This document shows positions 896 through 57,200 of a stretch of 64,000 nucleotides of DNA, in pieces. Position 1 is the first letter of the stretch; each line of letters starts with the position of its first letter. The position numbers were made by a program, and so were the translations under genes. The notes beneath the pieces are model-generated. The model made no database searches. It saw only the letters and a list, made by a program, of their open reading frames with translations, and had not been told where the DNA came from. The stretch lies in NCBI RefSeq assembly GCF_040958095.1, contig NC_091227.1:18343776-18407775 (forward strand), written 5' to 3'. The stretch comes from Procambarus clarkii (Eukaryota; Arthropoda; Malacostraca; Decapoda; Cambaridae).

Positions 896-1455
896 TCCCA
901 TCCCTCATGGGCCCAGACGCTGTATTGACCCATCCCGCCAGCCAAAACTTAGTCTGGCACCGTCCACATATTAGAGATAATCACCGTTAAAATTACTCGA
1001 TCAATCGCCACGAGCCTTGCCACTCTGGTACCCACTGAGAACTGTAATATAAAACTCATTACGTTATTTATATAATGGTTATATTTATTCGACCGTGGGT
1101 TATAATTTAAGAGCATTTTGACTTAATTGTACAAGTAACGGGGGATTCTGCATACAGGTAGTAAGAGGGTAATTGTAAACATTAAACACGATCGCGTTTT
1201 CTATTACGATTTCAATGCACGTGTCGCATTCTTTGTCGATGTTTCATACTTTTGGCCGTGTGTCAATCCTTATATTTGAAAGCACATTATGGTGTGCATG
1301 ATGCAGGCGAGAATGTCGACCAAAAGAAAAACTAGTTGCTCGACGAATCTGCGTTCAGAACGAAAAGGTTTAAGTCAATCTTGCAGAATGGGAGTGCGCA
1401 TGTGAAACCATTTGAGGGCAATTTAAAGCTAAATCACTGTTGTTCTCTGACGCAG

Positions 1456-1662
1456 GACTTCACTAGAGAGCGGCCGCTGGAGCAGGTAGTGGAGCTCATC
1501 TGTCAGGAGTCCACAGCCCATGGCGTTGGTCACACCTGGAACAACCGCAGGAACTTCCTCGGGGTGTTCTGGTTCATCGTCACTGCCTCCCTCTTCATTC
1601 TCCTGCTTCTCTTGTCTGCTAGACTTTCGTGCGACTTCGTGCAGAGGGACGTTCAGTCACAG
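1456..1662 (+). CDS. Channel exon 1 of those visible: HG motif and TM1
   Basis: Acceptor after ctgacgcag; 69 codons in phase 0. Contains ESTAHGVGHTW (the gating-related His-Gly) and a 24-residue hydrophobic helix. It ends CAG followed by gcgagt, a GC-type donor; this is the only end that keeps frame with the next exon. Confidence 0.8.
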
Positions 1663-30000: not shown

Positions 30001-33000
30001 TAAACTCTTTAACTAAGAGTTTCTAAATAAAAAAAGGAATATATATAGATATTAAAAAATAAACTTTACTATGTAACTACTGTAACACAAATTCTTAAGA
30101 GGTTACACAATTTATTGCTATTTTATTTTATCACATTGTCCTAACTGCAGTGTCCCTCTTACAGTTGTGCATATCCTTGTTGAATGTCCTGACTTCCCTA
30201 ATACTACAAAACCTTCCTTGATACCAAGACTGTTTTTACACAACTGCCCTTCATATTACACAAGGGGTAGCCATCAACTGCAAAACTTGTGGTAAGCACA
30301 TTGTTCACAATGGAGTTAAATTTACAGAATGTAGTGCCATCAACTCTTCTTAAAATACATAGAAAATTCTTAAATATTATGAACCAAAATCTATAATCCA
30401 TTCTCCAAATGTACATACAGTATTTTTAATTAATTCTTCACACAAATCGCTGACCAAAATCCCCCAGGGGGGATCTTAAACAAGCTGCTGGCTTCCTGTT
30501 CCTATCAAGGTCACTATTGATGGTGACCCAAAGGTAAATGCTGGTCGGTCAGATGAATAATGCCCCCTTCACTGGGAAGAAACATACCCAGGCACTCTCT
30601 CTCTCTTCGTGCTGCAACAGCATTATAACGCAGGTGCAATGCCGAGAACTCACTGTCCAGGTGACGTGCAGAAATCATGGGCAGAAGACAGGTTGGTTAC
30701 GAACAGAAACCGAGTACAGTGTATCTAAGAAGCAGGTTCACTTTCCAAGAAAAGTGGAGCATTAACTTCAAAAAAATTAAAAATTTAAATAATCACTTAT
30801 GACTGTGGGTGTTATTGTATTAATAATTACTGTTCTTACAATGGTGGTGGTGGTGTATAATAATTACAGTTCTTATGATTATTTTTGCATAATTATTTTT
30901 AATTATAATGATTATTTATGTCTATAATTATTTTTATTATGACTATGGTCTTGTTATATAATAATTATTCATGAATGTTGTGGTGTTGTATAATGTGATA
31001 AATAAAATATTGGCATCTGTATTGGTTATAAGTAGAAAAAAAAGCTTATTCAAAATCTATCCAAAGGTGTAATAAATTCATTCACCTTGGGAGGGTATAA
31101 AGGGACCCTTATGTTGCTGCTCAGTGTCGATTCTCTCGGATGAAACACATGGCTTTCCCCTTCAAAGATACCTTCGGCAAATATGATGACAGCACGTATT
31201 ACAGTGTCATTTGTTGTGGCTAGAGCAATCTCCACGTGAGGCTGGTAAATGTAAACAAAAAATTCCAGAAATAATGATTAAAAGTTATTATGTTTCATAT
31301 AAGTTCTTAGTCCCGTAGCCTTGAGGCCACGGGATTAAGCTGATGCTGATACTTCATAACCACACAAAGTCCTTAGAGCTAGAAGCAGATACACTTTCTA
31401 TATATACTTACTGGCTTATTTTTCTCTTCACTACCCATGTTAATAGCAAGCCCAGTCTGAAGTTGAGTGTTGGCCTGAAAAATAAAATGAAGTCCATAAA
31501 ATAAAATCGCAATGAGAAAAAATAATTATTCTGCACTACAGAACCTCTCAAGAAATACAGTCAGACACGGCCCTGCTGTTCACTTCATTTGGACAGCTTT
31601 ACTACATTGTTTCAGTTCAACTCAGCCTTCTCTATACACTAGTTTATTGGTTAGCCAGCTCCAGTTAACTACACACTGCGCAATTACCTAAGGCTTGATA
31701 GCCCCAGTACTATAGCTTGGAGATGTGTGGAGGAGTCCCTCCTCATACAAAAAACTAACAAAAATCCTTGCCTATATTAAGGGAATAATGTCATCAGAAC
31801 CCAGAGAGGAATTAATGACCATAATTTATATGGTGACAGAAAATACACAGTAATTTGTACGAGGAAGAGGTGATCAAGAGATCTAAAAATCCTTAAATAG
31901 AACCGAGGAGACTGACATGTCATTAAAGGAATTTTAAAGTTCGTAGAGTCCAGAACTGTCTTCAGAACTTGGCATATGATTGATTTTTCCAATGTAAACC
32001 TTTTCAAACATTAAAGACAAAGCCAGACAACAACAAACAAGCTTTAACTAGGGTTGCCAAAATAATTCAGATTAAAAGACTCGTGTTCTTCATGTCAATC
32101 TAACTCTTCAGTTATAACCTAAACTAACAATTCTGCCTCCTCAATTCAATTAACAATACCACATACACCTAGCAGTTTGTATGGTGAGCAACATACTGCC
32201 CCTTGGTGAGTATTCTTATACAATATTATTTCAGAGTGTACTGTGTACCTGAATTGTGATATTTTTGGATATAAATATTTTGCAAGGATGAAAGGGTATG
32301 TCGCCATATTCCCACAGTTGCCACATTCAACGGCATTCCATACCTAAAGTACTTGGACAGCAGGACAGTGTCTAATACAGTTCTGTAATTTTCATGAAGA
32401 TACATTATCTCAAGTTTCAATGTCTTAGCTTTAGCTGGATGATGTATAATTTACACTGCTGTTTGTCTCTGATCAAAGTTTATTGCACCTGCATAACATG
32501 TTAAAATTTAGTAGTTATCAAATAGGAACTTACAGGTATGACTCCAACTTGGTCCCCAGCAGTAGAAGGTTTCCCGAAGAGCACCTCTCCAGATGATCCC
32601 ATGCGCTGATTTTCCTCATAGTTTTTCAGCTCCAGCAGAAGATTGTGGCGTCTCTGACTCAATTCTCGGATTGTTTCTTGTTCGACATTCACATCCATCA
32701 TGGAATACCGACTCTCAGGTGAAGAAGACTGGTAACCACGAACTTCATGGAAAAGAAATTACCCAATTGCCATTTTATATGGATTTTTGTGAAAAAGTTT
32801 TACCTTAGTTTTTATATATATACCTTCCTGCATTTTGCATTTTGAATTTTAAAATATGTTACTTTTGCTAAACAAGCTATTCCATCACTCTAAAGCTCTA
32901 CAATATTTATTTTTCTAGACTATTCCACTCAAATACTACCCAAGGCAAAATCCATCTTGATCCCAAGACACGGTTACATCTATGCCAACACAACATGGAT

Positions 33001-36000
33001 CTTGTCAAATATCATGATCAAATGTCACAGTGCTAAGTGCTAAGGAGACACTGGAAAAATATTTTCATCCCAGTGGGACTGCAAAATGTTCACTCATAAG
33101 CACTCAAAGCCATTTTAAGTCCTACTTAGTATCACAAAAAAACAGCCCAGTAGTGCTTCCACAAACCACTTGCTTACAAAACTTACTGCTATCCTTGGCT
33201 GCCACCAGATGGCAGCACTCATGCCAACAGCTTTATTCCTCCCAATGAGGGATGGGAGGAATCAAGACTGATTTAAGTGAATGGACTCTGGTGACCTGTT
33301 ACAGGTTACAATTATTTGCCACCCGGTGCTGTTTGCTATGGCACACCCAACACCTTAGCGAGGCTCGGTAGGGTGACTGATGCCTATTCATTCCTAATTG
33401 AGAAGGTACTCTAGCCTGAGGTGCTATGTGAGGATTTGGTCTGGTTCCCTTGTAGCCATTGAAACCTTAACTACTCACATCTGAGAGACATACCTCTGGG
33501 TAAGGGGATTTATTTTTTTTTATCCAAGTCCATTTTGGTATGTTGCTTCCTCATTTCTACCTCAAGTCTTTATGCTGAGCAGTCCACATTCCTGGGATGT
33601 TGAATATGTTGGCTATCAGCCTATCTCAATTAAGCCATTCAGACCAAAATTCTGAAATCTAAATTAAACCAAAATGCTTCATCCAAGTTAATATACTGTA
33701 CGGTATATTAACATAAAATATAAAATTCACACTAACCTTCTCCATCAACAGAGCAACAAATAAGCTGATTTTTGCCATCCATGCGGTAGTCTCCTTGCAC
33801 AATACCAGCTATAGTTGACTGAAAGTTGTCCTGAAATGGAATAATTTCTTTAATACAAGTCACCTCAGTCATTTAACCATTTCAGCATCTTAAGACCCTG
33901 CCCCCACATGCAGTAATAATACTGCTCAACCCCAAGCATTGCTCATCATATGGTTTTACTACCAGACATTGCAAAGAAAACAGTTGAAGATAAACTTTAT
34001 TTAGAGGTAATCTTAGTGCCCATAAAGGCTTCATCAAAGCTAGCAAAGACATGCACACATAGAGCTAGTGCTTATAAAGGAAAAATGGGAAAGGTGTGGT
34101 CGAGGTCGGAAAGGTCAGGTCGAGGTCTGGAAGGTCCGGAAGGTGTGGTTGAGGCCGAGAAAGTGTGGTTGAGGTCGGGAAGGTGTGGTTGAGGTCGGGA
34201 AGGTGTGGTTGAGGTCGGGAAGGTGTGGTTGAGGTCGGGAAGGTGTGGTTGAGGTCGGGAAGGTGTGGTTGAAATATGCTACCTGGAAACAGGTGCACAG
34301 GTAAGACAATGAAACATAACCTGACCTTAAATACAACTTCTCCACTACGATCATTGCGAGCATCCATCTTCCCATTGCTCCAGCCAGTGATCAGCTCGGG
34401 AACACCGTCACCATCAAGATCATAGCTGTAGATTGCAATTGCCTGGTTCTTAGACTAGGAAAAAAATAAACAAACATTATTTATTAAAGCACAGAGAGAA
34501 CAGTATAAAAAATTAAGTTTTAATTGCATAAGAAAAGCTAATGTGTGAGCAGTACACTCAAATATTCCCTAAGGTAAGGAAGACAAGTGACATTGTCTAA
34601 AATAAAGATTTTTCTTTGACCAGTGCTTTTCTCATGGGTACTGTTTTCAATGTGAAATTATCATTTGCGTGATAAATATACATATTTGTAAATACACAAA
34701 CAATGTATGTATAAATGATGAGAGATAGAATTTGACATAGGTCATAGAGTGATAAAACTAAAATTCTTATGCATAAACAAGGCAAAATATATGCATATCT
34801 TATGCATATGCATATCTTATGCATAACAAGGCAAGATATCAAATTAAACATGTGAAAGAAGACATAATAAATAACTTATTGTTTTTAAATAAGATACAAT
34901 AACCATCTCATAATAAGAAATAAATGCAATAAAATAAATGGTACTTTTAATACATTATAAATCACCTTAATTCTCCACCACCTTGCCAGCTTTTCATAAA
35001 CTCCAACAGTACCATTGGCAAGGGCATAACCAAAACGAGAACCTTGCATCGGGCAGAGTGCCGTCACTGCTTCCGTTTCCGACATCTCAAATAAAATCTC
35101 TTCTTGTTTGAAAACTCTGATTTCAAAATCCTCCGAACCTACCAAAAGCTGCAATAGAAATGAATAAATATGGAAGATTACTGTATATATTGTTGTACAA
35201 ACATAACTTACCTACTTAAATTCTTGATAACACTGAAGGAAAAAGATAAAATTTCTCAGTATTTTAATGATCAACAGGTGCTTCAGAGTTTACATAATGT
35301 AGGTTAAGTGTATACATCCTTACTATGGTATACTTGTAAATATACTTGTATATTTACAGGTGCCCACATGAGGCACCTGTAAACATATAGCCCACACATG
35401 ACACCTGTAATCACCTGGCCCACAGTATAACTACTCTACCAGCAAATGTACAATACAACAAAATCTAAAAAAGAAACGACCCTCTGAAACCCTTTCAAAA
35501 TTTCCATACTGATTTACAATAAAAAACTTTTAACATTGGTGTTCTTACCAAAGATATTGCTGCTTACCTCATTTTCTCCATCTCCATCAAAATCTGCCAG
35601 TGTTAATGATGAAACATTATCACCAGTCACAGTCCAAAATGGATCATTGCCCTCACTGTCAAAGCCATGGATGGAACAGTTTCCTCCAATGAGAGCCAGT
35701 GGATATGTATGATGGCCCAACTGACCAATAGTAATAGCATTTGCTCCATCTGATACCTGTTGAAGTAAATTACTATTAATTTTATCTTCACGAGAATAGC
35801 GTTAACTCTTCAGGCGGAAAAAGGCAAAATATAAAATCATGTCTTCTGAATATATAAACTATTGTAATTGTATGTACTGTACTTTCTTGAGAGAATGGGT
35901 TGTAAGGTGCATGTTCTCAGTGGTCACTCACCTAACTCTGTAACTTGGCAGGCAAAGTCTATAATTGCCTGTGAAACAAAAACAAAACAAAAAAAATACT

Positions 36001-37395
36001 GTAGATCATTCTGGGCTAGATTAAATGCTTTTATTAATTTCCTAGTATCAATGAGGACCCTGCAGAAGTCGACTAAAATAAAAAAAATTCCTTTAGACTT
36101 AAGTGCAGAGTATGTTGTCCTACCTGACTGTACAATACATGAACCTGTCCTATAGATAGAACTGTTCTTACATCATCTTTTAAGCTGTGATTTAAGCTTT
36201 AAACTAAGTATTGGAAATGGTTAGGTTATTCAGTGACATGTTTTTCCCTTACAAAAGGAGTCATTAATCATTATGCTCAAAATTCTTTGTGCACTTGTGA
36301 CTATTAAATAAGCATTTCGTGTATTAACTATTTGACCACTGTACAGTGTTTTTGTGTATATTTTTATATAATTATTACTGTTATTATTATTATTACAATA
36401 CTGTTAATAAATAATAATAATAATATTACTATTGTTTTACTTCCAGATCCATAATTACTGCTGGGTGCTTAGGGGCAAAAATTGATGGAATGCTCCTACT
36501 CATTCCACCTTGCCAAGAGTTCGAACTTGGGTTGTACTCACAAGGCAAGCAGGTTAGAGCATTTACCACTACACCACAGCACTCTTAAATTAATAATGTT
36601 TACGTTATGCCTGGAAACACACTGCATATTAGTGGCTTTATATAATGTACATTTCTTACCTACAAATTCCATGCCATATCATGTAAAGCCTAGTGAAACT
36701 TTTTTTTATAAAGTAATGTGCTCAATCTGAGATTATATTAGTTGGATACTATAAAGTACATTTCATATCATGTTTTCCTTTAATGCAGGTCTCCAAACCC
36801 AGAAATTTCTGTTTAAAATTAAACTGATGACTTGCTGAATTAAGAATATTGCTCATTATATTTTAGAAATGCAACAAAAAATATTTTCCAATACAAAATA
36901 AAACAAAAACTTACATCTTTGTAAAAAACATCTGAATTATTCTGAACATCATAAGCCAAAACATTAGTTGGAGTTCCCACAACGAGGATATCACCATGCT
37001 TGGATTTGATCAATCCACCAGCTGTGAGTGCAGATACTGTCTGATTAATGTTGAGAAGGGATACCTCGGCACTACTTTGGCTGAGAGACATACGACCCCC
37101 TTCTAAACCAAGTCGCTGATGAGAGTTGTGAATGAACACCTGCAAAATGTATTTAAATCTTACTATATACAAGTAATAAAACAAAATTATGTAACAAAAA
37201 ATTATCATCATACAAGGACATGAATATCTAGTTACCTTAAGTGTAAAATTGTGGTGAACAAACTCTTATATTTGTTACCTTATCTGCAGTAGTTGATGCA
37301 GTAAGGCAACTATGGACGCCATCATATTTCCCAATGCATACTCGTCCTGGTAGAATCTTCTGGCTGAGATTCAGTGTAAATACTGGAACTAACAT
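20933..37395 (-). CDS. BBS2: Bardet-Biedl syndrome 2 protein (BBSome subunit), 14 coding exons, complete
   Basis: Minus-strand exons, 5' to 3': 37395-37279, 37139-36915, 35756-35568, 35148-34966, 34454-34326, 33830-33737, 32742-32534, 31474-31412, 31241-31086, 29878-29702, 28395-28177, 25930-25764, 23714-23566 and 21033-20933. Phase holds throughout, giving 725 residues plus stop, against about 721 in human BBS2. Recognised stretches include FTVTGDN-type [64 protein letters not shown] (coiled coil), [44 protein letters not shown] and CRQAIKNNN. Family knowledge: an N-terminal beta-propeller (about 1-320), then coiled coil, GAE/platform and C-terminal helices. It is part of the core BBSome, which moves membrane cargo in and out of cilia together with ARL6. 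In decapods ciliated cells are mainly sensory neurons, so that is the likely site of action (inference). Confidence 0.96.
21575..21795 (-). mobile_element. tRNA-derived SINE (family C), antisense, in BBS2 intron 13
   Basis: Second copy of the 18357-18590 element: gggaactataaaaaggagaa, gggatgggacagggg, then a degenerate tRNA-like head. Confidence 0.75.
22195..23010. repeat. Satellite-like tandem array, about 180-195-bp unit
   Basis: Three to four units share cttatatataatgtgtgtgt, gtgtatatagtg, attaacagcaaaa, gcatcatctgctgactgtgt and cctgttattgtctggactca. The first unit is split by a SINE at 22290-22537. Confidence 0.8.
22290..22537 (-). mobile_element. tRNA-derived SINE (family B) inserted in the tandem array
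   Basis: Flanked by the 12-base direct repeat taacctgttatt (22278-22289 and 22538-22549). The minus strand carries an A-box-like gtcgtagctcagtcgattaa and B-box-like GGTTCGAATCC. Confidence 0.88.
23566..23714 (-). CDS. BBS2: BBS2 exon 13
   Basis: [20 protein letters not shown] and [11 protein letters not shown]. Unspliced it would stop within a few bases, but a gttagt donor identical to exon 12's sits before that stop. Confidence 0.92.
24083..24155 (-). mobile_element. LINE 3' end fragment
   Basis: aattacctaagtgtagttac plus cgctcgtggtgtcccgtttt, the same end as at 8366-8430. Confidence 0.6.
25764..25930 (-). CDS. BBS2: BBS2 exon 12
   Basis: [20 protein letters not shown] and [15 protein letters not shown]. 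Ends at AT before gttagt; that donor (phase 2) is required to keep frame with exon 13. Confidence 0.92.
26660..27010. repeat. Dispersed repeat of unknown class in BBS2 intron 11
   Basis: Shares gaccagagccagaacctggc with 10945-10985. The segment cagaaagaggcatttcatta ... caatgctaggtttct is shared with 15720-15770. Probably one old transposon; class not recognised. Confidence 0.5.
27625..27950 (+). mobile_element. tRNA-derived SINE (family A) with a smaller insert
   Basis: tRNA-like head gcctggcagctgagtggaca and GGTTCGATCCCCGG, then ctttcaccctgatgcccttg, cctagcagtaaataggtacc and the ggccgcggggaaactaagcc tail. Interrupted at 27849-27895. Confidence 0.85.
27849..27895. mobile_element. 47-bp SINE-family-C fragment inserted in the family-A SINE
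   Basis: tcaggagggaacgccaagcc and agtatgactat match the tail of the 18357 copy. The 13-base duplication aggccgcggggaa flanks it (27836-27848 and 27896-27908). Confidence 0.8.
28177..28395 (-). CDS. BBS2: BBS2 exon 11
   Basis: 73 codons; [19 protein letters not shown] and LNLEDLQ match the platform region. Donor gtaaga. Confidence 0.93.
28594..29525 (-). mobile_element. Tigger (pogo/Tc1-mariner) deletion derivative, 932 bp
   Basis: Terminal inverted repeats CAGTGGTACCTTCGTTTACG and, inverted at the other end, CAGTGGAACCTCAGCTTACG, with TA on both sides. The minus strand reads like a Tigger transposase end: LFNDN-type NLFNDNV and [12 protein letters not shown], just after a Met-Gly-Pro-Lys-Lys start. 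The DDE core is missing. Confidence 0.85.
29702..29878 (-). CDS. BBS2: BBS2 exon 10
   Basis: 59 codons; [14 protein letters not shown], then [17 protein letters not shown]. Donor gtatgt. Confidence 0.93.
31086..31241 (-). CDS. BBS2: BBS2 exon 9
   Basis: 52 codons; [20 protein letters not shown] and VPLYPPK match the GAE region. Confidence 0.93.
31412..31474 (-). CDS. BBS2: BBS2 exon 8 (short)
   Basis: 21 codons, [18 protein letters not shown]; human counterpart ANTRLHTTLSVSLGNE. Too short for a stand-alone open frame; found by homology and flanking gcctgaaa/acttac splice sites. Confidence 0.9.
32534..32742 (-). CDS. BBS2: BBS2 exon 7 (coiled coil)
   Basis: Completes the split Val codon and reads [10 protein letters not shown], then the helix [19 protein letters not shown]. 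Acceptor tccatgaag, donor gtaagt. Confidence 0.92.
33737..33830 (-). CDS. BBS2: BBS2 exon 6
   Basis: Encodes [18 protein letters not shown], the end of the propeller. Donor gttagt, phase 1 out. Confidence 0.92.
34085..34270. repeat. 20-bp minisatellite, about 9 copies, in BBS2 intron 5
   Basis: gaggtcgggaaggtgtggtt, exact in five consecutive copies and diverged at the left edge. Confidence 0.93.
34326..34454 (-). CDS. BBS2: BBS2 exon 5
   Basis: 43 codons; [19 protein letters not shown] and [14 protein letters not shown] 20-bp minisatellite starts about 60 bases into the following intron. Confidence 0.93.
34966..35148 (-). CDS. BBS2: BBS2 exon 4
   Basis: 61 codons, [14 protein letters not shown] to RWWRIK. 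The donor is the weaker gtgatt, chosen because phase and homology both end there. Confidence 0.92.
35568..35756 (-). CDS. BBS2: BBS2 exon 3
   Basis: 63 codons; [20 protein letters not shown], then the FDGDGENE calcium-loop-like propeller repeat. Donor gtaagc. Confidence 0.93.
36515..36590 (-). mobile_element. tRNA-like SINE head fragment in BBS2 intron 2
   Basis: Minus strand: gctgtggtgtagtggtaaat and AGTTCGAACTC (A- and B-box-like). Same head type as 41230-41335. Confidence 0.55.
36915..37139 (-). CDS. BBS2: BBS2 exon 2
   Basis: 75 codons in phase 0. [15 protein letters not shown] and [17 protein letters not shown] match the propeller of BBS2. Donor gtaagt. Confidence 0.93.
37279..37395 (-). 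CDS. BBS2: BBS2 exon 1 (start codon)
   Basis: ATG at 37395-37393; [10 protein letters not shown] matches the family N-terminus MLLPVFTLKL. 39 codons, donor gtaaca. An acceptor (tgtttttcag) ends 18-21 bases upstream of the ATG, so the 5'UTR is probably split. Confidence 0.93.
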
Positions 37396-38829: not shown

Positions 38830-40370
38830 CACAACCCACGAAGCCTAACCAGTTTTGTAACCAGAGCCCGACCACTTGTGTAACCAAAGCCTGACCAGTT
38901 CTGGAACCGGAGCCTCACCAGATGTGTAACCGAACCCCAACCAGTTGTGTAACCGCAAGCCTAGCATGCAAACAACCTCATCAAACCCACACCAAGCCAA
39001 ACAAACAGCCCCAGAGCCTAACCAAACTCCCTCCCAAGCTCTACCAAACAAACCCTTCCTTAGCCCTAACAACACCCCCCCCCCCCCCACCCTTGCCTTA
39101 ACAACTAACTTTGGAGCCAAAGCAAACAAACAATTGAGCCCTATACACAAAAAGAAACCTGGAATTCTTGCAAAAATGCAACAATGAAGCCCTAGAAAAT
39201 AAACATGCAATTAGTCATAGTCAAGAAACAACCTGATGATCTAGCAAAGAAACATGAGGCACTAACACACAACCCCTGGAGCACAACCATGCACGAACCG
39301 AAGCCCGATCATGCACAACCCTAAGCCCCAGTGACACCCCCGGAGCCCGACCAGTTAAGATAACCGGAGCCCGACCAGTTAAGATAACCGGAGCCCGACC
39401 AGTTGTGTAACCGAAGCCCCACAAGTTGTGTAACCGGACCCCGACCAGTTGTGTAACCGCAAACCTAGCATGAACGAACCAAACAACCTCTGCATCACAA
39501 CCATGCATGAACCGAAGCCCGACTATGCACAACCCGAAGCCCGACCATGCACAACCCGAAGCCCGACCAGTTGTGTAACCACAAACCGAGCAGGAACGAA
39601 CCAAACAACCTCTGGAGCACAACCATGCACGAACCGAAGCCCGATCATGCACAACCCGAAGCCCGACCATGCACAACCCGAAGCCCGACCATGCACAACC
39701 CGAAGCCCGACCAGTTGTGTAACAACAAACCGAGCAGGAACGAACCAAACAACCTCTGGAGCACAACCATGCACGAACCGAAGCCCGATCATGCACAACC
39801 CGAAGCCCGACCATGCACAACCCGAAGCCCGACTATGCACAACCCGAAGCCCGACCATGCACAACCCGAAGCCCGACCATGCACAACCCGAAGCCCGACC
39901 AGTTGTGTAACAACAAACCGAGCAGGAACGAACCAAACAACCTCTGGAGCACAACCATGCACGAACCGAAGCCCGATCATGCACAACCCTAAGCCCCAGT
40001 GACACCCCCGGAGCCCGACCAGTTAAGATAACCGGAGCCCGACCAGTTAAGATAACCGGAGCCCGACCAGTTATTTAACCGGACCCCGACCAGTTGTGTA
40101 ACCGAAGCCCCACAAGTTGTGTAACCGGACCCCAACCAGTTGTGTAACCGCAAACCTAGCATGAACGAACCAAACAACCTCTGGATCACAACCATGCATG
40201 AACCGAAGCCCGATCATGCACAAACCCTAAGCCCCAGTAACACCCCCGGAGCCCGACCAGTTTTGTAACCGGAGCCCGACCAGTTTTGTAACCGAAGCCC
40301 GACCAGTTGTGTAACCGGACCCCGACCAGTTGTGTAACCCCCAAGCCTAGCATGAACGAATCTTTTTTTA
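38830..40370. repeat. Complex minisatellite, 22-25-bp units in higher-order blocks
   Basis: Units cgaagcccgaccatgcacaa and gagcccgaccagttgtgtaa alternate within larger blocks that each restart with gaacgaaccaaacaacctct (near 39465, 39595, 39735, 39925 and 40160). Long open frames on both strands (up to 199 codons) arise from the repeat and are not called as genes. Confidence 0.93.
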
Positions 40371-44524: not shown

Positions 44525-45213
44525 TTATATTGTTACTTGTTTGGAAACTTTGTGCTTCAGTGGTTTCTGGTGAGCGTCGCTTACTGCAACTCCGGAAACA
44601 TCTTGACCACCGCCGTCTGCACCATCAATGTACAAATCAATGTCTACGTTTTCACGTAAACTCACTTCTCTCTCACTACATTTGTCTACCACATCTGGCA
44701 ACTTTTCACAAAGAGTCTTCGTCGTCAATGTCCGTGACTGTAGATTCACCTGACGTTCGTGGGCTGCGAAGGGTGTTACACCATTAGTAATTTCTTCAGC
44801 TTGCCTAAAGTGAACATCATCACTACCTGGATGGCGTACGGCATCTTCACGAGCCTGATATCTGCCCTCAGTTTCTTGTAGTGGTTGACCAGGAATGCTT
44901 TCGTCCATATATAGTTCAGAGAAGTCTCTGATCCCGCTCAGTCTCACGAACTCCACAAAATCCTCCATGACAGCAAGACCTTCGGGCGAGCTCGTTGCGC
45001 CGTCAGCTTCGGCGTCCTTCTTGAGGATCTCCAGGTAGTGCTGAAACCAGTGGAGCGGCGTGCGAGTCTTCCACTCCTCGGGGATGTGGGGACTGTTCTT
45101 AAGCCTATCCTCAACGTCCAGTAGGAGAGTTTGGTCCTCAGTGGAACACTGACGCCGGGGTCTCTGGGTCATAGTGTTGAATGTGTTGGCAGTAGACGAT
45201 ATGCCGCTGTTGG
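44525..45213 (-). CDS. Nmdar1: Receptor exon 21: distal cytoplasmic tail
   Basis: Acceptor ttgcttcag completes an Ala codon, then 228 codons to TAA at 44527-44525. Acidic, with [20 protein letters not shown] and [17 protein letters not shown]. No domain recognised. The long open frame and non-repetitive composition support coding. Confidence 0.7.
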
Positions 45214-48200
45214 CTGAAGCAAAGTTGTCACTATTAAAAGAAACATTCCCCACCAATGAAATGTTATTTATGCAATATTCACATATTTACTTAAACATTT
45301 AACATAGTAACACATGAACTATTACTGAAATTAAGTGCTGACCTGTTGACACGAGAGCTGTGGAGAGGCAGCACTGTTTCCCCGTGGGATGGAAGCCCTG
45401 GTTCCTTGTGAGGCGGCATGTCTGTTCCCCTGTGGAGTCATAGCAGTTGTTCTTCATGGGGTGATCGTGTTGGTCCTCCTCGGGGTGGTAGCAATTGTCC
45501 CCTAGTGGGTGACAGTGATGGTCCCCAGTTGACGAGCAGCTCTTGTCTCCCATAGGATGCACTTCTGCTTGGGTCGTGACTCTGCTCTGCCAAGTAATAC
45601 CTCTATTAGTTTTTCGAATTATAATAAATGATAAGTGTAAGCGATGATATTGAGATATATAGCACGAACGTAGGCCTACGTGGGAATTACATTTATCACC
45701 CTAAATTTCATTATAAATTGTTTGTTTAAAACAACATCTTGTATTACAATAACAAAGCTGTGAATACCAGTATTTATTTGCAAAATTATAATAATGACAA
45801 AGCCATGAATAGCTTGGTCAGTAATGAGAGCTTCCCCTCACTACCTACCTCTAGCGCCCCTGTATTCTCAAGGTCGCCACCAGCAGTAGCGTCGTCTTCA
45901 GGTGTTGTTGGGTGCTCTGCGAGGTCCTGCTCGCTCTGGCTCTGCGGCTCCCGACTCTTGCAGCGGTCGTATATAATCTCGCCCAGAACAAGGATGGTGC
46001 CGCTGAAGATGCCGCCGGCGATCATGATGAATATACCCTCCAGGTTCTTCAGTCCTAGACGCTTTGAGAAGTCCGCGTCTTTATGGTCCTCGTCGCATAT
46101 CTCTCCATCGTTCCAGATCCACACTTTGTCCAGGTCTTCCATGTAGCCTCCTGGGACATGCATCACCAACACGACAAAGTCAGATGACAGACTAATAACA
46201 CGACTACACCATTTGATTAACAAAAACAAACCGATGTGCTGCTAAAAGATGAATAATGTGACAATATGAAATATTTTAAAGCATAATTTAAATGAACAAC
46301 ATGCTCAATACAAGACCTGTTGATATATCGACTTCATCTTAACAAAAACTCACTCTCGTGAAGATCGAGGATATCTAGAGTGATCTTGTCTGCCCAGGGT
46401 GACCCCTTCTGCAGGCCGACCCCGTAACCTGAGCGGCCGAAGAGCTCCCCGACGGTGACCAAGCTACAGTCCCGTGAGGCTTCGTACTCCAGGCGTGAGC
46501 TCTCCCATATGAACGCCTGCAGGCTCCTGTGAGACGTATGGGAAACTTTCGTGAGAAATTCAGATAATCATAATAACCGGATGAAGCTACGTCGACTGGT
46601 TATTGTGGACATCTCCCAACCCCCGTCAAAGTGAGACCAGTGGCACACTGACCCTTGACGGAGGGCGTGGAGGGCGAGGTCAACAGAGGGGTAGTTATGG
46701 GCCTCCATGACGCGGTACATGTTGGACCACTCCGTCTTCCGCCGGAAGAACATGTCCACCGCCGACCCCCTCACTGTCGCGAACGTGAAGTTCTCTACAG
46801 GGTTTCTCAGCTGTAGTGAAGAGACAGGTAGAAGTTTCAGTAGTGGTGGAGAGTGAGGCATGAGAGAAGTCTCTCTCTATGCTTCACTCTATGTCATTTT
46901 ACGGCATGTAATAATAATTCACAATTCGTATTAATTTATGTATAGTCATCTGTCCCATGTATGTCTCTGAGTCTCTCCTTATCTGTCTCTGGATGTAGCG
47001 TCTCACCCTGGCGTCGCTGATGCCTGTGATGGTGGTGGAGGGGGCGTCGAGGACGAGGAAGGCGGCGAGGTTGGCCGTATAGGAGGCCACCATGATCATG
47101 GCGAAGCCTCCCCACACTATGCCCAGCACCCGCCCACTCACACACCTCGGGGTACCTGAAGGAGACACACACCAACACTTTTACCCTCTCTAGCAGAGGC
47201 ATCACGCTACCCCACACACGTATTGTCATTTATTAATGAGAAAAGGAAGAGTCATATGAAGAATTCGAACTTGTACACTAGGTACCCCTCAAGCACACAT
47301 GTAACACGGGTTAGGGTTTCTCTCTCTTTTCTTCCTTCTTTCTACTCCCTCTACCCGTATTCTTACTTTTATTTCTAAACCAAGGGACTCCAAAACTTTT
47401 AACAAAGCCAACTCCACGCCACGTGGTCCTAAGACGATTGACCGACTTAGGATTCTACACCCAGTATGACGTGACCTAAGCTCTGAACAAAACCCTAGAG
47501 TCACCTCTGCTGCCACCACCAGACCAGTAATACAAGAGCAATGATCGAGGTCTGGATCGATCACGCTAATTAATCAACCTAGGGGCTTGATCCCCACTAT
47601 AAACGATGACCTTGAGTGTGGAATAAATTACACGGTAATGATGATTCCGATTCGATGTTAGAATCGGCGCACAATGCAACTCTGCCTCGTGTGGACCACG
47701 TGACCAGGACAAGTATACACATAAAACACATGGAAACAATAAAATGCAAATTAATAACAAATTTAATTTATTAAAAGAAAACTAAAACAAAATCTAAATG
47801 TGTTCACTCCCTATCACTTTAACACTCCCTACTTGACCTGAATGGCAAATGAGAAGACTATTTCTATACATAACCATAGCAACTATACCTTGGGCGACCA
47901 GCTAGATGTCTTGGGGAGAGGTAAGATGTTTGACCTCTCCCAGCTGCTCCCGTATTCACACTGATTTTTCCCTTGTCTCGTCTCCCCCAGACAGAACATT
48001 GTATCCTTGCGCCTAGTCAAAGTTCTACCCAGTTACTAGCAAGGTTTAAGTTATAACAATTAAACTCGGTTGTACTTAATTGATCCAGACTAGTTGAATT
48101 ATTTTACTGAAATAAATTACACAAGCCTCTAACGGCAGAGCTGTTCCCGATCACAAAAATGGTTATTAAAACTTTGAGAAATATTAGACATGTCAACCCT

Positions 48201-51200
48201 GCTGACCTATGACCGCCGGTCACTCCGCCTCAAAAGTTAGATCTGATTCGTGACGTCACTGATGGTGACTTAAACTCAATAATTAGAATACTCTTGATAT
48301 TGTATCCAGTACTATTATACAATACAATTTTAATGCAAAATGAATAAAGGCTAATTTTCTCTAAATTACTTGAATACTATAGGATGATTCATTATACGCA
48401 GATATGAACAAAGCGTCGGTTATTTCCACCGCGAATTCCCCTGGGGGTCAGGTCACCATGCGGCTCAGCTTCCCATTCTCTTTTGTCGATAAACCACTCT
48501 GGATAATTCTTACAACAGCCTAGTCTGTTACACACACCCTAAACCACTAAACCGCGATATGTTGCGCAAGTAATGCAGCCTGGGATCCAACTGAATCATC
48601 GGGGGATCTTTAGGTTTCCACTGAAGTCAAATGAGGGTTTCACTCATTACACTCTGGCTGTGGTATAGAAGTTCTACCCCCCAGCGCTTCTCTTTTGTCA
48701 ACTACATCACAGAGCTCAGGATTTTTTCCGTATATGTGCTTGCCAACCACATATTCAATGTCAAGTAGTCTAGTTATGATTATTGCTTGTATTCCTTCCG
48801 CGATTATAATTATTGACCCTGATAACAGTTGGCTTATCTTCTCTTATATATGTAAAGATTAGACAACACGTCAGCATAGCCTAAAATTAGACTTCAGAGC
48901 TTCAGGAATGAGGCGTAGTAGATCTCTGAAGCAGATATTTCACCACACGGAGCCAACTGAGAGGCTTTCAGATCCTGCTCCATTGAGGACAAGCCTTAGA
49001 TTCTATTCTTGAAGGTAGTCTCTAATCAGCTGTAAGATGAAGCTTGAGATACCTAGTACTACTTGAAGCTTTGCAAGAACTCCAAGGTGTCCCACCAGGT
49101 TAATGGCTTCTGCGCAGCCCAGCGCAACAACTTAGCTCATATTTGATACATCGAGATTGATGCCACTTGATAATGGAAAATTTTAATAAAATATCAGCAG
49201 AAGAGCGATGGGCAGAGTTTCTTTCTGATGCCCCCTTTTACCTAGCAGTAAATATATACCTGGGAGTTAGACAGCTGTTATGGGCTGCTTCCTCTGTGTG
49301 TGTGTGTGACTGCACATGGACATTGTTGCTAGAGTACTTACCCTCTGTGAGTCCGCTGTTGAGGATGACTGACCAGGAGAACCAGAAGGACTCAGAGAGT
49401 ACCAGGGAGTCCGTCTCGGCGCCCTCCAGCCTGTAGGGCAAGCAGGGAGGATTATCACACAAAGTAACACTCAGCAAGCACTCTCTCACTCTCCCCACAT
49501 GCACACGCTGAGACTCAAACCACGTGCACTCTTGCACTAACACACACCATGTACTCTCACCCCCAGCCTTCGTACGTACTCTCATCCTAACACTCATGCC
49601 AACGCACTCATACAAGATGCACTCACAATACAACACTCAATACACTGGCTGTACCAACACTCATCAGCCAGCACGATACAAACCCTCAAGTTAAATTAAA
49701 ATCTTTTCTGCATATTAATTTAAAAAATATTACATTCAACCCCTTCCTCACGTTACTATACGACTCTCTTTCTCGGGTTAACCTTAGTTCCCTCTCCGCG
49801 CCCATTCCTTTTACTGCTCCCCGTACCTCTTCCCGTTCCGCGCCTCCTCCTCCTCCTCCTCCTTCACCACTGACTTACTTGTAGACGGGGCTGAGACGGT
49901 CCAGGAGCCAGATGACGACAGCAATGACGTGGACGGTGACCAACAGGAGGAGCCACAGGGTCCCGTGGAAGGGCTGCAGGATGGACACGAGGGCCGGCAC
50001 CACGGGCGTCTGGCTCCACACGCAGGGGTCAAGTGAGATCATATGACCAAACCACACACTAGAAAGTGAAGGGACGACGACGTTTCGGTCCGTTCTGGAC
50101 CATTCTCAAGTCGATTGTGAATGGTCCAGGACGGACCGAAATGTCGTCGTCCCTTCACTTTCTAGTGTGTGGTTTGGTCATCATATTTCAGCCACGTTAT
50201 TGTGACTCCTCGTCTGCAAGTGAGATCATATGAGGAGCCGTGTACGAGAGAACATTTCTCAAAACAGATGCAGCTTTGTGCTTACGCTTCTCTGCTTTAT
50301 CTTTACTAAAGGTTCCAAATGATCTACAAATGCTTCAGATAAATTTTCCTTGCAGCTTCGGTGCAAAAATATCCAGGGAATTTCCATTCCCTGGATATAT
50401 ATCAGATCTCAAATTGTGGTTCAAATATGAATTTTAACCCCAAATATGAAATGGACAATGACAAAATGATCAAAATATTAATAAACCAGATAGGCCTATA
50501 ATCTGAACAGCCTTGGTCTCAATGTGACCCCAGGGAGTTCACCTTACTGAAAAAGTATATGACATATTTCAATTAACTGTATACATTAGCCACTAAGAAC
50601 TACAGAACTATAATCACTGTCCTCACTCAAGCTGTTCTTCAGCTCGGAGCCAATATCTTATCAACAGTGATTTAATTTCCATTCAAATCAGCAAAGCCGT
50701 TCGAGCACTCAAGCAATAACTGACTATCAGGCACATGTGTAGAATTCTTAAAATCTTGTTTTCTGTTCCAGTGGTAGTGACAGGTATTGGTATTCCACAC
50801 TGGTAGAGACAGGCTTGTAAAACAACTACTCGAATCTGAAACCTTTACATTATACTGCGACAAAGTTAAGGAAAAAACAAACTAAAGTCAGAAGGCGAGA
50901 GACGCCTTGTCTTACCCTCTTAATGAGAATGGTGATCCCATGGTACTTGAAGGGCTTGGTGAAGTGCAGGGCCTGGGAGCGCTCGGGATTGATGGTGAGC
51001 GGCGCCATGATCATGTCGACGCCCGCACTCTGGTTCACCAGCTGCCCAATCATCCCATTCCACTCCTTCTTCCCTGCAAGGTCATGTCAGGTCACGTCAT
51101 GTGGGGGTGTTGACTCCTCCGCTCTCCCGCTTGTGTTGTATTATACAGTCTGTAGACTGAGTGGTGTTAGGCTTCAACATATACCTTCTCTTCCAGCTCG

Positions 51201-54200
51201 ATGAAGCTATTGCCTGCTGCTCGCTTAGTAAAGCAGTGCTGACTTTACTGGTTCTTCCTGGCCCCTTCTTACTCTATTGATTCTGTCGCACCTTCCTAAA
51301 TATCCCCCCTACCCCTCGTTTTAGTAGCTTTTACCTTTTTTTACTCCCCACCCCCTTACCTTCATTGCCCTCCTCACTTTACTTATTCTACCTTACCTTC
51401 CTGGCCCTCCCTTGCTTTACTAGTTCTCTCTCGCCATCCTGCCTCCTGTACTGGTTCATTACCTTCTTGGTTCTCCCTGCGCTCGCCGTACAGGCCGTCT
51501 GGGGAGAGGGTGAGGTTGAACGTGAAGCCATTCCTGGCAGTCAGGGTGTGCAAGAGGTCTATACAGTACCCCCAGCAACACATCTTCTCCATCTCTGTGA
51601 GGAAGAACAGCAGTTTTACAGTGCCCAAACTACCACATCTTAGACTCTGTGGGGAATAACAACATATTGACGCAGTATCAATGCCAGAATAGTTTTCATC
51701 ACAGTGGAGACAAACAACTGATCCACACATTATCTCCCCAAGGACTATCCCAGGTGTTTTGGCTTTTATTTTTGACTCCCATTTCCTCGCCTTAAATTAG
51801 CTGCAGTGCTTGGCTTCCCTCGCCTAGTCTGGCCAACAGTGAACTAGTCTGATTCCACTCGCTTCGCCTGACCTCTACAGCATGCCTAGGGCGGTGGATG
51901 CTTCAGTCTTATTCAATTTGTACACAATTTTTCCAGTTGTGGCTCCCGTCCCCTCACGCAGCTTGCCCTGGAGGCGACTCCCCGTCCCCCGCTCCTTCCC
52001 TCACACGTGGGGCCTCTGGCAGCGGTTTTCCTTTCCTTCTTTTGCCTGATCTGTGCGGTTGCCTCCGGTGATGGCTCTATGCTTCATGTATACTTCACCT
52101 TATACCAGCGGTTTGCCCATTTTGCGTGGCTCCCTTGCCTGACGTGTAGGATTTGGTGACTACCGTTCCCCCTCGCTTAACCCGCGCTGTTTGCCTTCAG
52201 CATGGCCCCCTTTCCTTGCCCTTGCCTATTCCGTACGGCTTGCCTCCAGTGGAGGCTTGCCTCCCTTGTCCTGGCCTGACGTAACTTGCCTCCGGTGGTG
52301 GTGTTGAGGCGCGGACAAAGCTCTTCATCAGAGGCTACACACTCATCCTCTGAACTGATGGCCTCAGCGTACACGAAGGGCGTCTCCTGGATGGTCATCA
52401 CCTGAAGAGCGAAGAGTTAGTCGTAAGGAGAGGGTGAGGAAGCTAAGAGGTAATTACGATGGTGATTACACAGGATTACTTAAGAGTTTAGAGCTAACAG
52501 GGAACATATGGTTTAGAAGAAGTCAACTTTGTGGTGGTTTCTTGTGAACTTTTGATGAGTGGAATTGTATACTCAGTCTATTTTCTTTAAATGTATTTAT
52601 TGAGCTAGTATTTAATTGATTGTTTAATTGATCCAGATATTAGTAGGCTAGTGTTTAATTGATTGTATTTATTAGTATTTAATTGCAAAGTAACAGATCG
52701 ATTTTTTTTGACCGAAGGCTAATAACGTCTGTTTCATATGAGTACTCACCTAGTTGTGCTTGTGAGTGGTAGCAACCTTGAGCACCTCACGTACAACTTT
52801 TGAAAACAACCATTTTGATGCACCCACAAGATGTTATGAGAGAAACAGGTAATCGGCGGAGGAAGCAATAAAGAGGGGAAAAGAGAGAGAAGAACACCTC
52901 AAGGTGTGAACAGTTACAGCCCCGCTCCTGTACCAGGTAAGTCCACTACGGGCTCACTATAGCCCGTGCTATAAGGTGACTTACATTGAGGTGTGTGGGA
53001 AGGGAGTACCCAGGCGGGGCGACGGACGAGCCTCCTGGCCACACTATCATCGACATGTTCACCTCCAGCGTCATCTGGTCACTAGCCTGCAACAAAAACA
53101 ACATCATCTCTTCATGGACCTATAAGACAGTGTCATAATAACCTCCTACGCTTGCAGTTACAAGAATAACAATGTTGACATCATCGAGCACCCTCATCTT
53201 CTCAGCATTCAGTGTTATTGCAACACTATCAATAACAATAACAGCACCATCATCTTTTCATTAGCCAACAATAGCTAAAGTGTCATTCTCTGCTTACTAA
53301 CCAACAACAGTCGCCATCTACCCACTGGCAACAAGAACAGTCACCATCTATACACATGCATGCAATAACATCTCTCTCCTTTCCTTACTTCAACTGAACA
53401 GCTTGTCTCACCTTGTCGTAGGAGAACTCTCCGACGTGTTGAAGGTTCCTGAAGACGAGGTGGTCCTGGTGTTGGTCCTGGACGTTAAGGAGGGAGTAAT
53501 CAGCATGGGTTCTATCCCCGTTGACGTCAAAGGCCACCTTACCTGTGTGTCCGTCAATAAGTACCTGCTCCTGCATCAGTCTGGAGGAAGAGAGGGAGCA
53601 ACGTTACGCTAGTAGACGACAACCTGTTGAAACAGTAGCCAAGGTTACTTCTCAAACAGGAGGCCTGGTTGAGGAACGGGGCCGCGGGGACGCTAAGCCC
53701 CAAAGCCATCTCAAGGTAACCTCGAGGTAAGGTAGATCTTGATTTTAAAGCCTAATAAAAACTTATCCTCAGCTGATGATGATTGTTTCATCAAAGACGG
53801 CCATGAGGGAAGGGCGGAGGTATGGTTAGGTAATGATGAGGAGAAAATAATAATAATAATAATAATAATTACAAAGAATAGAGTATATAGTTGAAGACAA
53901 AAAAACAGCATTTTTCTAATCACAATATAATTTACACAAATGTTCTTGATGGCGTTCATTATCATGGCAAACTCCATACGTGCAAGCAGAGTTTTGTAAG
54001 CGTTAGTGTTGTGTGACCTGAAGAGAGTGGAGCCGGTGTGGTCCCAGCCGCCCTCAGCGTCGCAGGTGACCGGCGGCTCCGGGATCACCTCCTGGGTTTC
54101 GTGCAGCCGTCGCAGCGCCAGCGACATCACGCGCCTCGGGGGAAAGAAATAACATCGTAAAGCTCTTTTACACACACAAAACCTAGGACTGGTATTTCCA

Positions 54201-57200
54201 TGAACTATGAATACGAAGATAAATATGATACGGGGCGTCAGCAAGGTCGATACGCCCCTAAATCAACTCCAACATCGACGTTCTACTTACAGACTGTCGG
54301 TGATATGGGCCTCGTAGTCATCGGCGTGACTAAGCCGGAGGCCCAGGGCGCCGACGGGGACGTGGTGGGCTTGGAGGGCCTCTTCAGTCACCAGCCACAC
54401 GTACCCGGCCTCTGTCAGGTTGAGAGAGGCTGCGCTCTTAAAGATCCTCTCCGCGTCAGGCTCCCTAGTAGTAAGTGGAAAGAGGGCAAGGGGGTAGAAA
54501 TAGCCTAAGCTACTCTATTCATTTGAGTTGTATTTTCTTGTCTCAATAAACATACTTGAACTTGAGAGACAACAAGTCTAAAAATAACTGATTAAATGCT
54601 ATTATAACCGTAACTAACACTCTAATTTAGCGATAACAATTATACACTCAACTCAATGTTAAAAAACATCAAGTGCACGGTGAATCTGTTTCCGTCTATT
54701 AAAATAAATTTGTCTATTTCCCGTTTATTGTTTGTTTGGTTTAACCCATCAGATCATGACCCAACAGAACAAACCAATGCCGACGACATTTAGGTGTTGC
54801 TAGGCTACTACTCACTTTGCGTACAGCAGGATAACTTTGACCAGCTCCTGACGGATGCTGATCAGTTCCTCGGTGAAGGACTCCTTACCGGGTGCGAACT
54901 CTATTACAGATACCAACTGTAACGAGGAATTGTTTATTATTATTATGTCATACTAATTTATGAGTAGAAAACTGGAACGTTACAGTACCCGTTCCTTGTT
55001 ACATATAATGATCGCGGTGTGATCATAAAACAAAATTTAGAGCAGCCTAGCTAGTCTTGATGTTCAATCATAAAACCACTGGTTAAATAATGTTGTGGAA
55101 AAAAAATGGTTAAAATGCAGAAAAAATGTCGAATGAAATGAAATTAAATTACATTGGGAAAGCATTGTGAGTAGTGCTATAACGATTTATTTCCAAGGCA
55201 ACCTTTTTTTTGTAATATATATTATTGACACTGATAACGTCACAGGCTCCCATCACCAAACTTGCATATGATACACAGACATACGGGAAAGTTGTCGGCG
55301 AAACATATATGTTTAAAATTACAAAACAATCTTTCCAATCTTTCCAATCAAAAGACTGGAAAAAACTTTTGAGTTTAGAAAAGTTCAAGATCTTTCATGG
55401 CGATAGCAATACACGTCACAGCTACCGACAACTGCAGAAAATCTGAAAATAAAAACACGTGATGGGAGTAATAGTCCACAAGTCATTTAAACATTCTCAG
55501 CATTAAGGAGCTACGGTTAAGAAATAAAAGAATAATTACTAAGAAAAATCAAACGAACCTTTATCTTCAAGGAAATGAACTTCAACCTCGATAAAAATAA
55601 TGTAGATATCCATTTGCACAGATCCTTATTGCGTCCCCAGCCGGAATATTGTATCCAATCATGGATATTGATATTGGAAAAGGCTTTTGCACAGTATAAC
55701 AAGAAATAACTAAATAAACAGTCACGGAAGGATAGGTCTCATTCAGACAAGACATTGGTCACGTTAAAACGTTAATCCAGTAAATTTCTTAAAAAATGGA
55801 CCATGATTCACACCAACAGTTTCAAGCTCAACAAGCCACAAATGTACTTGTTGAGGCTTGTTGAGGCTTGTTAATGGCTTGTTGAGCTTGAAACTGTTGG
55901 TGTGAATCATGGTCTATTTTTTAGAATAGAATAGACAAAGGATAGACAACGGTAAATGTTTTTCCACCAATGGAAGATGGAGAGAAATTCCACAAGACAC
56001 CGATTACTAATAACAAGGTACAAATGAACCCTAAAAATAATAGCCTTCAGGTAAACTTTTATCCCATGCACATGTCATGTAATCTACGCCCTTGGTGTAC
56101 CGTAAACTAGCCTAGCCAAGCAGGGTGTGATGCCTCAGTACTGTATATGGTGTGGTGGGTTACCTTGATGCCCTTTTCGTCATGGCGGTGCTGAGCGAGG
56201 CTCTGGAAGCGGGTGTAGAGAGCACGGCCGTCCGTGTCAGAGGAGTGAAGGAGAATAACCTGGCGGTACTGGAGGTTCTTCAGGAGGCGCACCCACACGT
56301 CCGCCTGGTGACTATATGGCGGCACCGTCCTCAACAGCGACACATGGATGTTCTGAAAACATATGAGGTTAATGTTATTACCATCCTGGTTATGTGCTGG
56401 TGATTGTGCCCACCTCTTGCGATGGTGACCGATGGTAAATACAGTATTTAGCATGCCCAATATTTTCACCAGCTGTGGCAATACGTCAGATCCGAGACTC
56501 ACCTTGTTGGAGAAGGCAGAGTCCCTGGTGTGGGTGCAGATGACGGGGATGTGGTAGAACCCGCAGGTGTAGGACACGGCAGCTGTGGTGACGGATCCGC
56601 CAGGGGGACTAGACACCACACCCCGTACACCTGAAGGTGTTCAAATAAATTCAGGAAGGTTGGTTTAGTTCATATATTATGCACCCATCTTGTGGGTGGT
56701 GGTAGAAAGGGTTACAGAGGCTCAAGGTAAACAATACAATATCTTATATTTTCATGAATGTGTATGAAAAGTAGAGTGAGGTTTGTCTGGGAGTAACATA
56801 TCAATGCAGTATATACTTACAGCCTGAGAGATAAGGGCCTGGCAGACCTGAAGGGCGGCGGTAATAGGGCTCCCGCGCAGGACAGTAGTCACGTCGTACA
56901 GCGTCGTCTGCTCCGCAACCGACACTCCGTCAAAATTTATTCTCTAAGAAAATAATATTATCAAGCAATAAAATTTTGCATTGAACAAATATATGTTCAT
57001 ATATTTATAATTACAATCGTATTTGGCATAAAGGGAAAGTTGAGAATCAAATTATCTGAGATTTGAAAATTTTTGAGTTGAGAATCAAATCTTAAAACCC
57101 AGACATTCTATTATATAGATCGAGGACTGTAAACTTAACAATTCCATTTAGACAATATGGGGACAGGGTTTCCGTTCCGTTATGCGTTCATGAGTTAACC

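What the first reader, a model, noticed from the sequence alone, without database searches (positions are those of the whole stretch)
45343..45586. Eight in-register His/Cys octapeptides in the cytoplasmic tail of a glutamate receptor
Seen: units [56 protein letters not shown] and HPTGKQCC follow each other without gaps, i.e. a 24-base coding tandem repeat in one exon with fitting splice phases. Inference: it may bind Zn2+ or Cu2+, or act as a redox switch beneath a Ca2+ channel. I know of no NMDA receptor with such a tail.
Basis: partly seen in the sequence, partly recalled or inferred. Interest (0 to 1): 0.78.

Follow-up and report, generated by a model that had tools for sequence, protein, structure and literature searches.

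The report
Old octapeptide repeat in receptor tail
A GluN1-type glutamate-receptor gene of an unnamed animal carries, in the part predicted to code for the tail inside the cell, a worn eight-fold repeat rich in histidine and cysteine; the repeat is real, but nothing here shows that it binds metal or senses redox state, and it looks most like an old coding minisatellite that serves as a loose spacer.

Summary
Eight 24-bp units lie head to tail at 45559-45368 (- strand), in the open frame of predicted exon 45586-45343. Lag-24 identity is 0.457 against 0.273 in codon shuffles (0 of 20,000). The units are worn (28% mean amino-acid identity) and Tandem Repeats Finder misses them. The gene looks like an intact GluN1-type NMDA receptor subunit: 18 exons join into one frame of 1,104 residues, best solved-structure match GluN1 (E 7e-149). 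Homology stops just after M4, so the repeat lies in a tail unlike that of known GluN1. Metal or redox function is not supported: simulated neutral decay of the consensus unit keeps as many His+Cys in 17-25% of runs, and synonymous versus non-synonymous change between units does not clearly depart from neutrality. The exon's acceptor is mediocre; no transcript or related species could be examined. Most likely it is an old coding minisatellite acting as a flexible spacer. More notable, outside the finding, are three changed glycine-pocket residues (F484Y, S688A, D732E).

The parts
45343..45586 (-). predicted tail exon e19 (244 nt, enters in phase 0, leaves in phase 1), 81 residues
   Evidence: open frame; acceptor cttggcag|AGC, donor CAACAG|gtcagc; codon log-odds 0.143 per codon in this frame (-0.011 and -0.11 in the other two) against an intron maximum of 0.018
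45368..45559 (-). eight 24-bp units (unit 1 at 45559-45536 ... unit 8 at 45391-45368), consensus CACCCCACGGGGGACCAGTGCTGC = HPTGDQCC
45849..46150 (-). exon e18: end of the ligand-binding domain, M4, first part of the cytoplasmic tail
   Evidence: GluN1 match ends just after M4; donor GAG|gtaggt
44525..45213 (-). last predicted exon e20: 229 residues to the stop, with a predicted helical stretch (about 45160-44912); the second half has weak coding statistics
   Evidence: (log-odds 0.174 first half; second half -0.35, no better than the next frame at -0.332)
46354..46526 (-). exon e17 (second lobe of the ligand-binding domain; carries D732E)
46653..46810 (-). exon e16 (second lobe of the ligand-binding domain; carries S688A)
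47007..47155 (-). exon e15 (M3, SYTANLAAF)
49342..49430 (-). exon e14 (pore loop, ILNSG; N616 kept)
49879..50009 (-). exon e13 (M1); palindrome just upstream of its acceptor
50916..51073 (-). exon e12 (first lobe of the ligand-binding domain: P516, T518, R523 kept)
51463..51594 (-). exon e11 (first lobe of the ligand-binding domain; carries F484Y)
52290..52401 (-). exon e10 (start of the ligand-binding domain; GC donor)
52985..53086 (-). exon e9
53412..53580 (-). exon e8
54018..54134 (-). exon e7 (amino-terminal domain)
54291..54464 (-). exon e6 (amino-terminal domain)
54816..54916 (-). exon e5 (amino-terminal domain)
56164..56352 (-). exon e4 (amino-terminal domain)
56503..56630 (-). exon e3 (amino-terminal domain)
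56817..56943 (-). exon e2 (amino-terminal domain; a donor at 56817 keeps the frame with e3)

Best explanation
The gene encodes a divergent GluN1-type NMDA receptor subunit with a tail unlike that of known GluN1. One tail exon arose by tandem duplication of a 24-bp, frame-keeping unit (ancestral peptide near HPTGDQCC), a coding minisatellite whose copies have since drifted to about 54% mean pairwise nucleotide identity. The translated segment most likely acts as a flexible, low-complexity spacer between M4 and a distal helical stretch; its His and Cys are inherited from the ancestral unit rather than kept for metal or redox chemistry. Shown: the repeat, the open frame, GluN1 homology up to M4, no detected homology after M4. 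Inferred: that the exon is spliced in, that it is cytoplasmic (from family topology), that it is a spacer.
For: Repeat beyond chance. One frame of 1,104 residues over 18 exons with consistent phases. Exon codon statistics lie above each of 222 overlapping intron windows, though below the six core-exon windows (0.143 against 0.246-0.544). Skipping the exon to the 45213 acceptor breaks the frame. In the search with e8-e20, GluN1 homology runs to query residue 525, just after M4, then stops although the best-matched chain is 938 residues long. No Pfam family or solved chain matches the tail exons. The window is rich in other minisatellites (28 TRF rows at score 120 or more, some describing the same array), so a minisatellite origin needs nothing special. 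His+Cys of 15 or more arise in 17-25% of open neutral simulations. The pS-pN difference is reached by 20 of 665, 127 of 651 and 239 of 618 open simulations at transition weights 1, 2 and 4.
Against: The acceptor at 45586 is mediocre and not unique: 34 of 459 acceptor/donor pairs keep the frame open to the e20 stop, 9 of them with donor 45343. In 21 cases e18 can also be joined directly to an AG inside e20 with an open frame. The coding frame of e19 beats the other two frames only modestly (0.143 against -0.011 and -0.11). About 12-13% of neutral simulations keep the array open anyway, and at transition weight 1 the pS-pN excess is mildly unusual (20 of 665), which leaves room for selection on the peptide. 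The 15 His+Cys far exceed core windows of the same protein (mean 2.8, maximum 7). No transcript or orthologue was seen.
Confidence: 0.6

Rival explanations
1. The octapeptides form a metal-binding (Zn2+ or Cu2+) or redox-sensitive tail that regulates the channel from inside.
For: 8 His and 7 Cys in 64 residues, far above core windows of the same protein (maximum 7); clusters such as DHHCH and HDH, and a terminal CC.
Against: His+Cys content is within neutral decay of the consensus unit (17-25% of simulations). Position 7 is Cys in only 3 of 8 units, position 1 His in 5 of 8; unit 7 (RLTRNQGF) has neither His nor Cys. No Pfam family or solved chain matches.
Confidence: 0.08
2. The array is not part of the mature mRNA: it is an intronic minisatellite that happens to be open, and the real tail uses intron retention (ending ...[20 protein letters not shown]) or joins e18 directly to an AG inside e20.
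For: Mediocre acceptor (17.7% of decoys as good or better); 21 alternative direct joins of e18 to e20 and a short retained-intron tail are open; an open frame through the array is expected in 12-13% of neutral simulations; the window holds several other minisatellites.
Against: Codon log-odds above each of 222 intron windows tested; best-scoring donor of the stretch at 45343, in the right phase.
Confidence: 0.22
3. The repeat is a selected protein-protein or lipidation platform (for example cysteines for palmitoylation) of a lineage-specific receptor tail, without metal binding.
For: pS 0.61-0.63 exceeds pN 0.43 in the coding frame, while the other two frames give about equal values.
Against: The excess is reached by 3-39% of open neutral simulations depending on transition bias; no relatives to test conservation.
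Confidence: 0.1

Closest known systems
GluN1 (NMDA receptor subunit 1, vertebrate)
   Same: 205 of 384 aligned positions identical in four rows of the best alignment (chain residues 418-818); N616 pore asparagine, [10 protein letters not shown]744/C798, P516/T518/R523/V689/W731 kept
   Different: Glycine-pocket changes F484Y, S688A, D732E; no match to the GluN1 tail after M4; different, repeat-bearing tail
Decapod NMDA-1A and NMDA-1B transcripts (Cancer borealis, Homarus americanus; PMC5096308, passages seen)
   Same: Both species are reported with two 1-like transcripts, so a divergent second GluN1 gene in a decapod would be no surprise
   Different: Panulirus argus was reported with one NMDAr1 homologue (PMC6150509, passages)
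Prion-protein octarepeat (recalled)
   Same: Tandem octapeptides encoded by 24-bp units, containing His
   Different: Units here are worn, lack the HGGGW core (recalled), and would be cytoplasmic; likeness of unit length only
Coding minisatellites in disordered protein segments (general class, recalled)
   Same: Unit length a multiple of three, in-frame tandem copies
   Different: This array is so diverged that TRF does not call it

Membership tests
GluN1-type NMDA receptor subunit | Best match among solved structures is GluN1 over ligand-binding domain and membrane region | tested here: met
   (query e8-e20): E 7.4e-149; the 60 listed of 368 matched sequences are all GluN1; GluN2 and GluN3 scores were not seen and no tree was made
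GluN1-type NMDA receptor subunit | Amino-terminal domain, ligand-binding domain, M1-M4 in one frame | tested here: met
   (ANF_receptor 1.9e-25, Lig_chan-Glu_bd 9.4e-28, Lig_chan 4e-34); the first exon and signal peptide were not settled
GluN1-type NMDA receptor subunit | Pore-loop asparagine N616 | tested here: met
GluN1-type NMDA receptor subunit | Glycine-site residues F484, P516, T518, R523, S688, D732 (list recalled in part; F484, T518, D732 named in PMC6707325) | tested here: inconclusive
   three kept, three changed (Y, A, E)
GluN1-type NMDA receptor subunit | C0 segment of the tail after M4 (C0 recalled) | tested here: not met
   best alignment ends at chain residue 844 of 938; none of the 60 listed best stretches runs past query residue 525. 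C0 is a feature of known GluN1 tails, not of the receptor core
Metal-binding octarepeat (prion-protein-like) | Regular His in every unit | tested here: not met
   His at position 1 in 5 of 8 units; units 6 and 7 have no His
Metal-binding octarepeat (prion-protein-like) | Measured metal binding | not testable with these tools
   needs peptide or protein
Coding minisatellite | In-frame tandem units beyond chance | tested here: met
Coding minisatellite | Copy-number variation between individuals or species | not testable with these tools
   no relative or second individual in reach

The most novel reading that the evidence does not exclude
A lineage-specific GluN1 paralogue has swapped the calmodulin-binding tail (recalled for vertebrate GluN1) for a His/Cys octapeptide array that senses cytosolic Zn2+ or Cu2+ or redox state beneath the Ca2+-permeable pore, in a receptor whose glycine pocket has also changed (F484Y, S688A, D732E).
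Probability: 0.06. Interest if true: 0.8.

Novelty: new variant of a known kind. Interest (0 to 1): 0.33.

Why it matters
If transcribed, it shows how the tail of an otherwise conserved receptor can be replaced, in part by repeat expansion. Together with the changed glycine pocket it marks a GluN1-type gene whose co-agonist and regulation may differ from the canonical receptor. If the metal or redox reading were true it would be a new control route for NMDA receptors, but nothing here favours that.

Tried and rejected
Metal or redox function as main explanation: set aside for lack of support. Dispersed repeat family: apart from the eight units, no cluster appears among the 25 best matrix hits in the window, and a consensus-like pattern with up to 3 mismatches hits only units 1 and 8. 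Periodicity running across the exon junctions: beyond e19 the lag-24 identity in the spliced tail falls to 0.19-0.32, so no extra evidence for splicing came from it. A frameshift between e2 and e3 (the donor GCT|gtaagt does not fit the phase of e3): set aside because a donor GTAA|gtatat at 56817 keeps the frame. Known fold for the helical stretch of e20: AlphaFold2 without relatives gave mean pLDDT 44.0 for the 228-residue exon and 71.9 for an 83-residue stretch; Foldseek with the short model gave 74 matches at E up to 10, best E 1.3, so no assignment. Relatives: viral contigs with e20 and e19 and genome contigs (bacteria and archaea) with the receptor core e8-e18 gave no relative; these are not animal collections, so the absence says little. 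Literature: nine searches showed no such tail in the titles and abstract openings listed; lists were capped (20 of 50, 15 of 25 and 8 of 11 papers shown), and the library lacks most subscription papers. I saw only passages of PMC5096308, PMC6150509, PMC7510291, PMC6307864 and PMC6707325.

Full report
What is there. The minus strand between about 56.9 and 44.5 kb carries a receptor gene. Exon by exon reading and joining of 18 exons (e3 to e20) gave one frame of 1,104 residues with a single terminal stop. e2 joins in frame through a donor at 56817, and a probable further exon lies at about 58.87-58.74 kb; the start of the protein was not settled. Pfam finds ANF_receptor, Lig_chan-Glu_bd and Lig_chan. 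With e8-e20 as query the best solved-structure match is GluN1, E 7.4e-149; the 60 listed of 368 matched sequences are all GluN1. Over four rows of the best alignment (chain residues 418-818) 205 of 384 aligned positions are identical.

The repeat. The frame 45586-45343 holds the eight octapeptides exactly as reported. Lag-24 identity is 0.457 against a codon-shuffle mean of 0.273 (0 of 20,000 shuffles), and unit peptide identity is 0.281 against a largest shuffle value of 0.138. The array is old: units differ from their consensus CACCCCACGGGGGACCAGTGCTGC (HPTGDQCC) at 3 to 10 of 24 positions, and TRF at minimum score 30 misses it. Beyond e19 the lag-24 identity in the spliced tail falls to 0.19-0.32. 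The window as a whole is rich in clearer minisatellites, and other lags reach higher identity elsewhere in it, for example lag 33 with 0.988 near position 2260.

Is it an exon? For: phases 0 and 1 fit the neighbours. Codon log-odds is 0.143 per codon, above the largest of 222 overlapping intron windows (0.018; mean -0.64) but below six windows of the core exons, 0.246-0.544, of the same gene, which trained the score (those windows left out in turn). The donor at 45343 scores best in its stretch. Skipping the exon to the 45213 acceptor gives a stop after 14 residues. Against: the other two frames of e19 are only modestly worse (-0.011 and -0.11). The acceptor is mediocre, with four higher-scoring AGs between 45809 and 45400. 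Of 459 acceptor/donor pairs, 34 leave the frame open to the final stop, 9 of them with donor 45343; 21 direct joins of e18 to an AG within e20 are open too, and retention of the first intron gives a short tail. So inclusion is likely, not proven, and the exact start is open.

Where is it in the protein? The GluN1 match ends at query residue 525, just after M4, although the best-matched chain runs to 938 residues. In the joined frame 42 residues lie between that point and the first octad. By topology of the family (established knowledge) this is the cytoplasmic tail. The two tail exons e19 and e20 have no Pfam match at E up to 10 (the program's filters drop most weak matches) and no solved chain at E up to 10. 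The last exon has a predicted helical stretch (single-sequence AlphaFold2, mean pLDDT 71.9 for 83 residues) without a convincing structural match (best E 1.3). The second half of e20 has weak coding statistics, -0.35 against -0.332 in the next frame, so the true end of the protein is less sure than the open frame suggests.

Does the repeat look functional? Between units pS is 0.63 and pN 0.43 in the coding frame (0.61 and 0.43 when paths through stops are allowed), and about equal in the other two frames. In simulations that scatter the observed number of changes over the consensus, the same pS-pN excess is reached by 20 of 665 (transition weight 1), 127 of 651 (weight 2) and 239 of 618 (weight 4) of the runs that stay open, and 12-13% of runs stay open. 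His+Cys is 15 of 64; neutral runs average 12.0-12.9, and 17, 18 and 25% reach 15. Hence the His/Cys wealth is explained by the ancestral unit. It is real compared with the rest of the protein (64-residue windows of e8-e18: mean 2.8, maximum 7), but there is no sign that it is kept by selection. One genome cannot exclude selection either.

Mechanism. My best reading is a worn coding minisatellite that lengthens a disordered tail as a spacer (0.6). Rivals are an unspliced intronic array (0.22), a selected non-metal platform such as lipidation or binding (0.1), and a metal/redox tail (0.08).

What is known. Crab and lobster are reported with two 1-like NMDA transcripts, NMDA-1A and NMDA-1B (PMC5096308, passages); the spiny lobster with one NMDAr1 homologue (PMC6150509, passages) and later five NMDA receptor types in all, one of them NMDAr1 (PMC7510291, passages). 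None of the passages I saw describes the tail. My nine literature searches listed no paper on such a repeat in a glutamate receptor; the lists were capped and the library is partial.

Beyond the finding. In the alignment the glycine pocket keeps P516, T518, R523, V689 and W731 but has Y for F484, A for S688 and E for D732. [quoted passage not shown] The substitutions here are different ones, so their effect is open. By the rule in PMC6307864 (passage: serine at 653 and a non-polar residue at 655 in glycine-binding receptors; that 653/655 correspond to GluN1 687/689 is recalled) the subunit would still be of glycine type. This deserves a specialist's look more than the octads do.

Noticed in passing
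window 46526-46354, 46810-46653, 51594-51463 (-): Three glycine-pocket residues of GluN1 are changed: D732 to E, S688 to A, F484 to Y, while P516, T518, R523, V689, W731 and pore N616 are kept.
   Followed up: partly
window 28108-37265 (-): Downstream on the same strand lies BBS2 (BBSome subunit 2): Pfam BBS2_N 1.8e-24, BBS2_Mid 1.3e-07, BBS2 platform 4.8e-16 in three open stretches.
   Followed up: partly
window 50034-50190: A 76-nt palindrome (91% complementary arms, 5 nt between), MITE-like, ends some 25 bp upstream of the first base of e13, whose acceptor is itself weak.
   Followed up: partly
window 52290 (-): Exon e10 appears to end at a GC donor (GGAG|gcaagt), a GC-AG intron.
   Followed up: no
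window 1336-1686 (+) and 1953-3117: Weak match to an amiloride-sensitive sodium channel (E 0.00049, below Pfam's cut-off), beside a 33-bp minisatellite of 35 copies that is open in long frames on both strands.
   Followed up: no
window 38841-40339: Complex arrays of 22-23 bp units, with higher-order units of 122, 144 and 188 bp.
   Followed up: no
window 12547-12617 (-): tRNA-Thr (CGT): Rfam reports a tRNA here and ARAGORN calls it tRNA-Thr.
   Followed up: no
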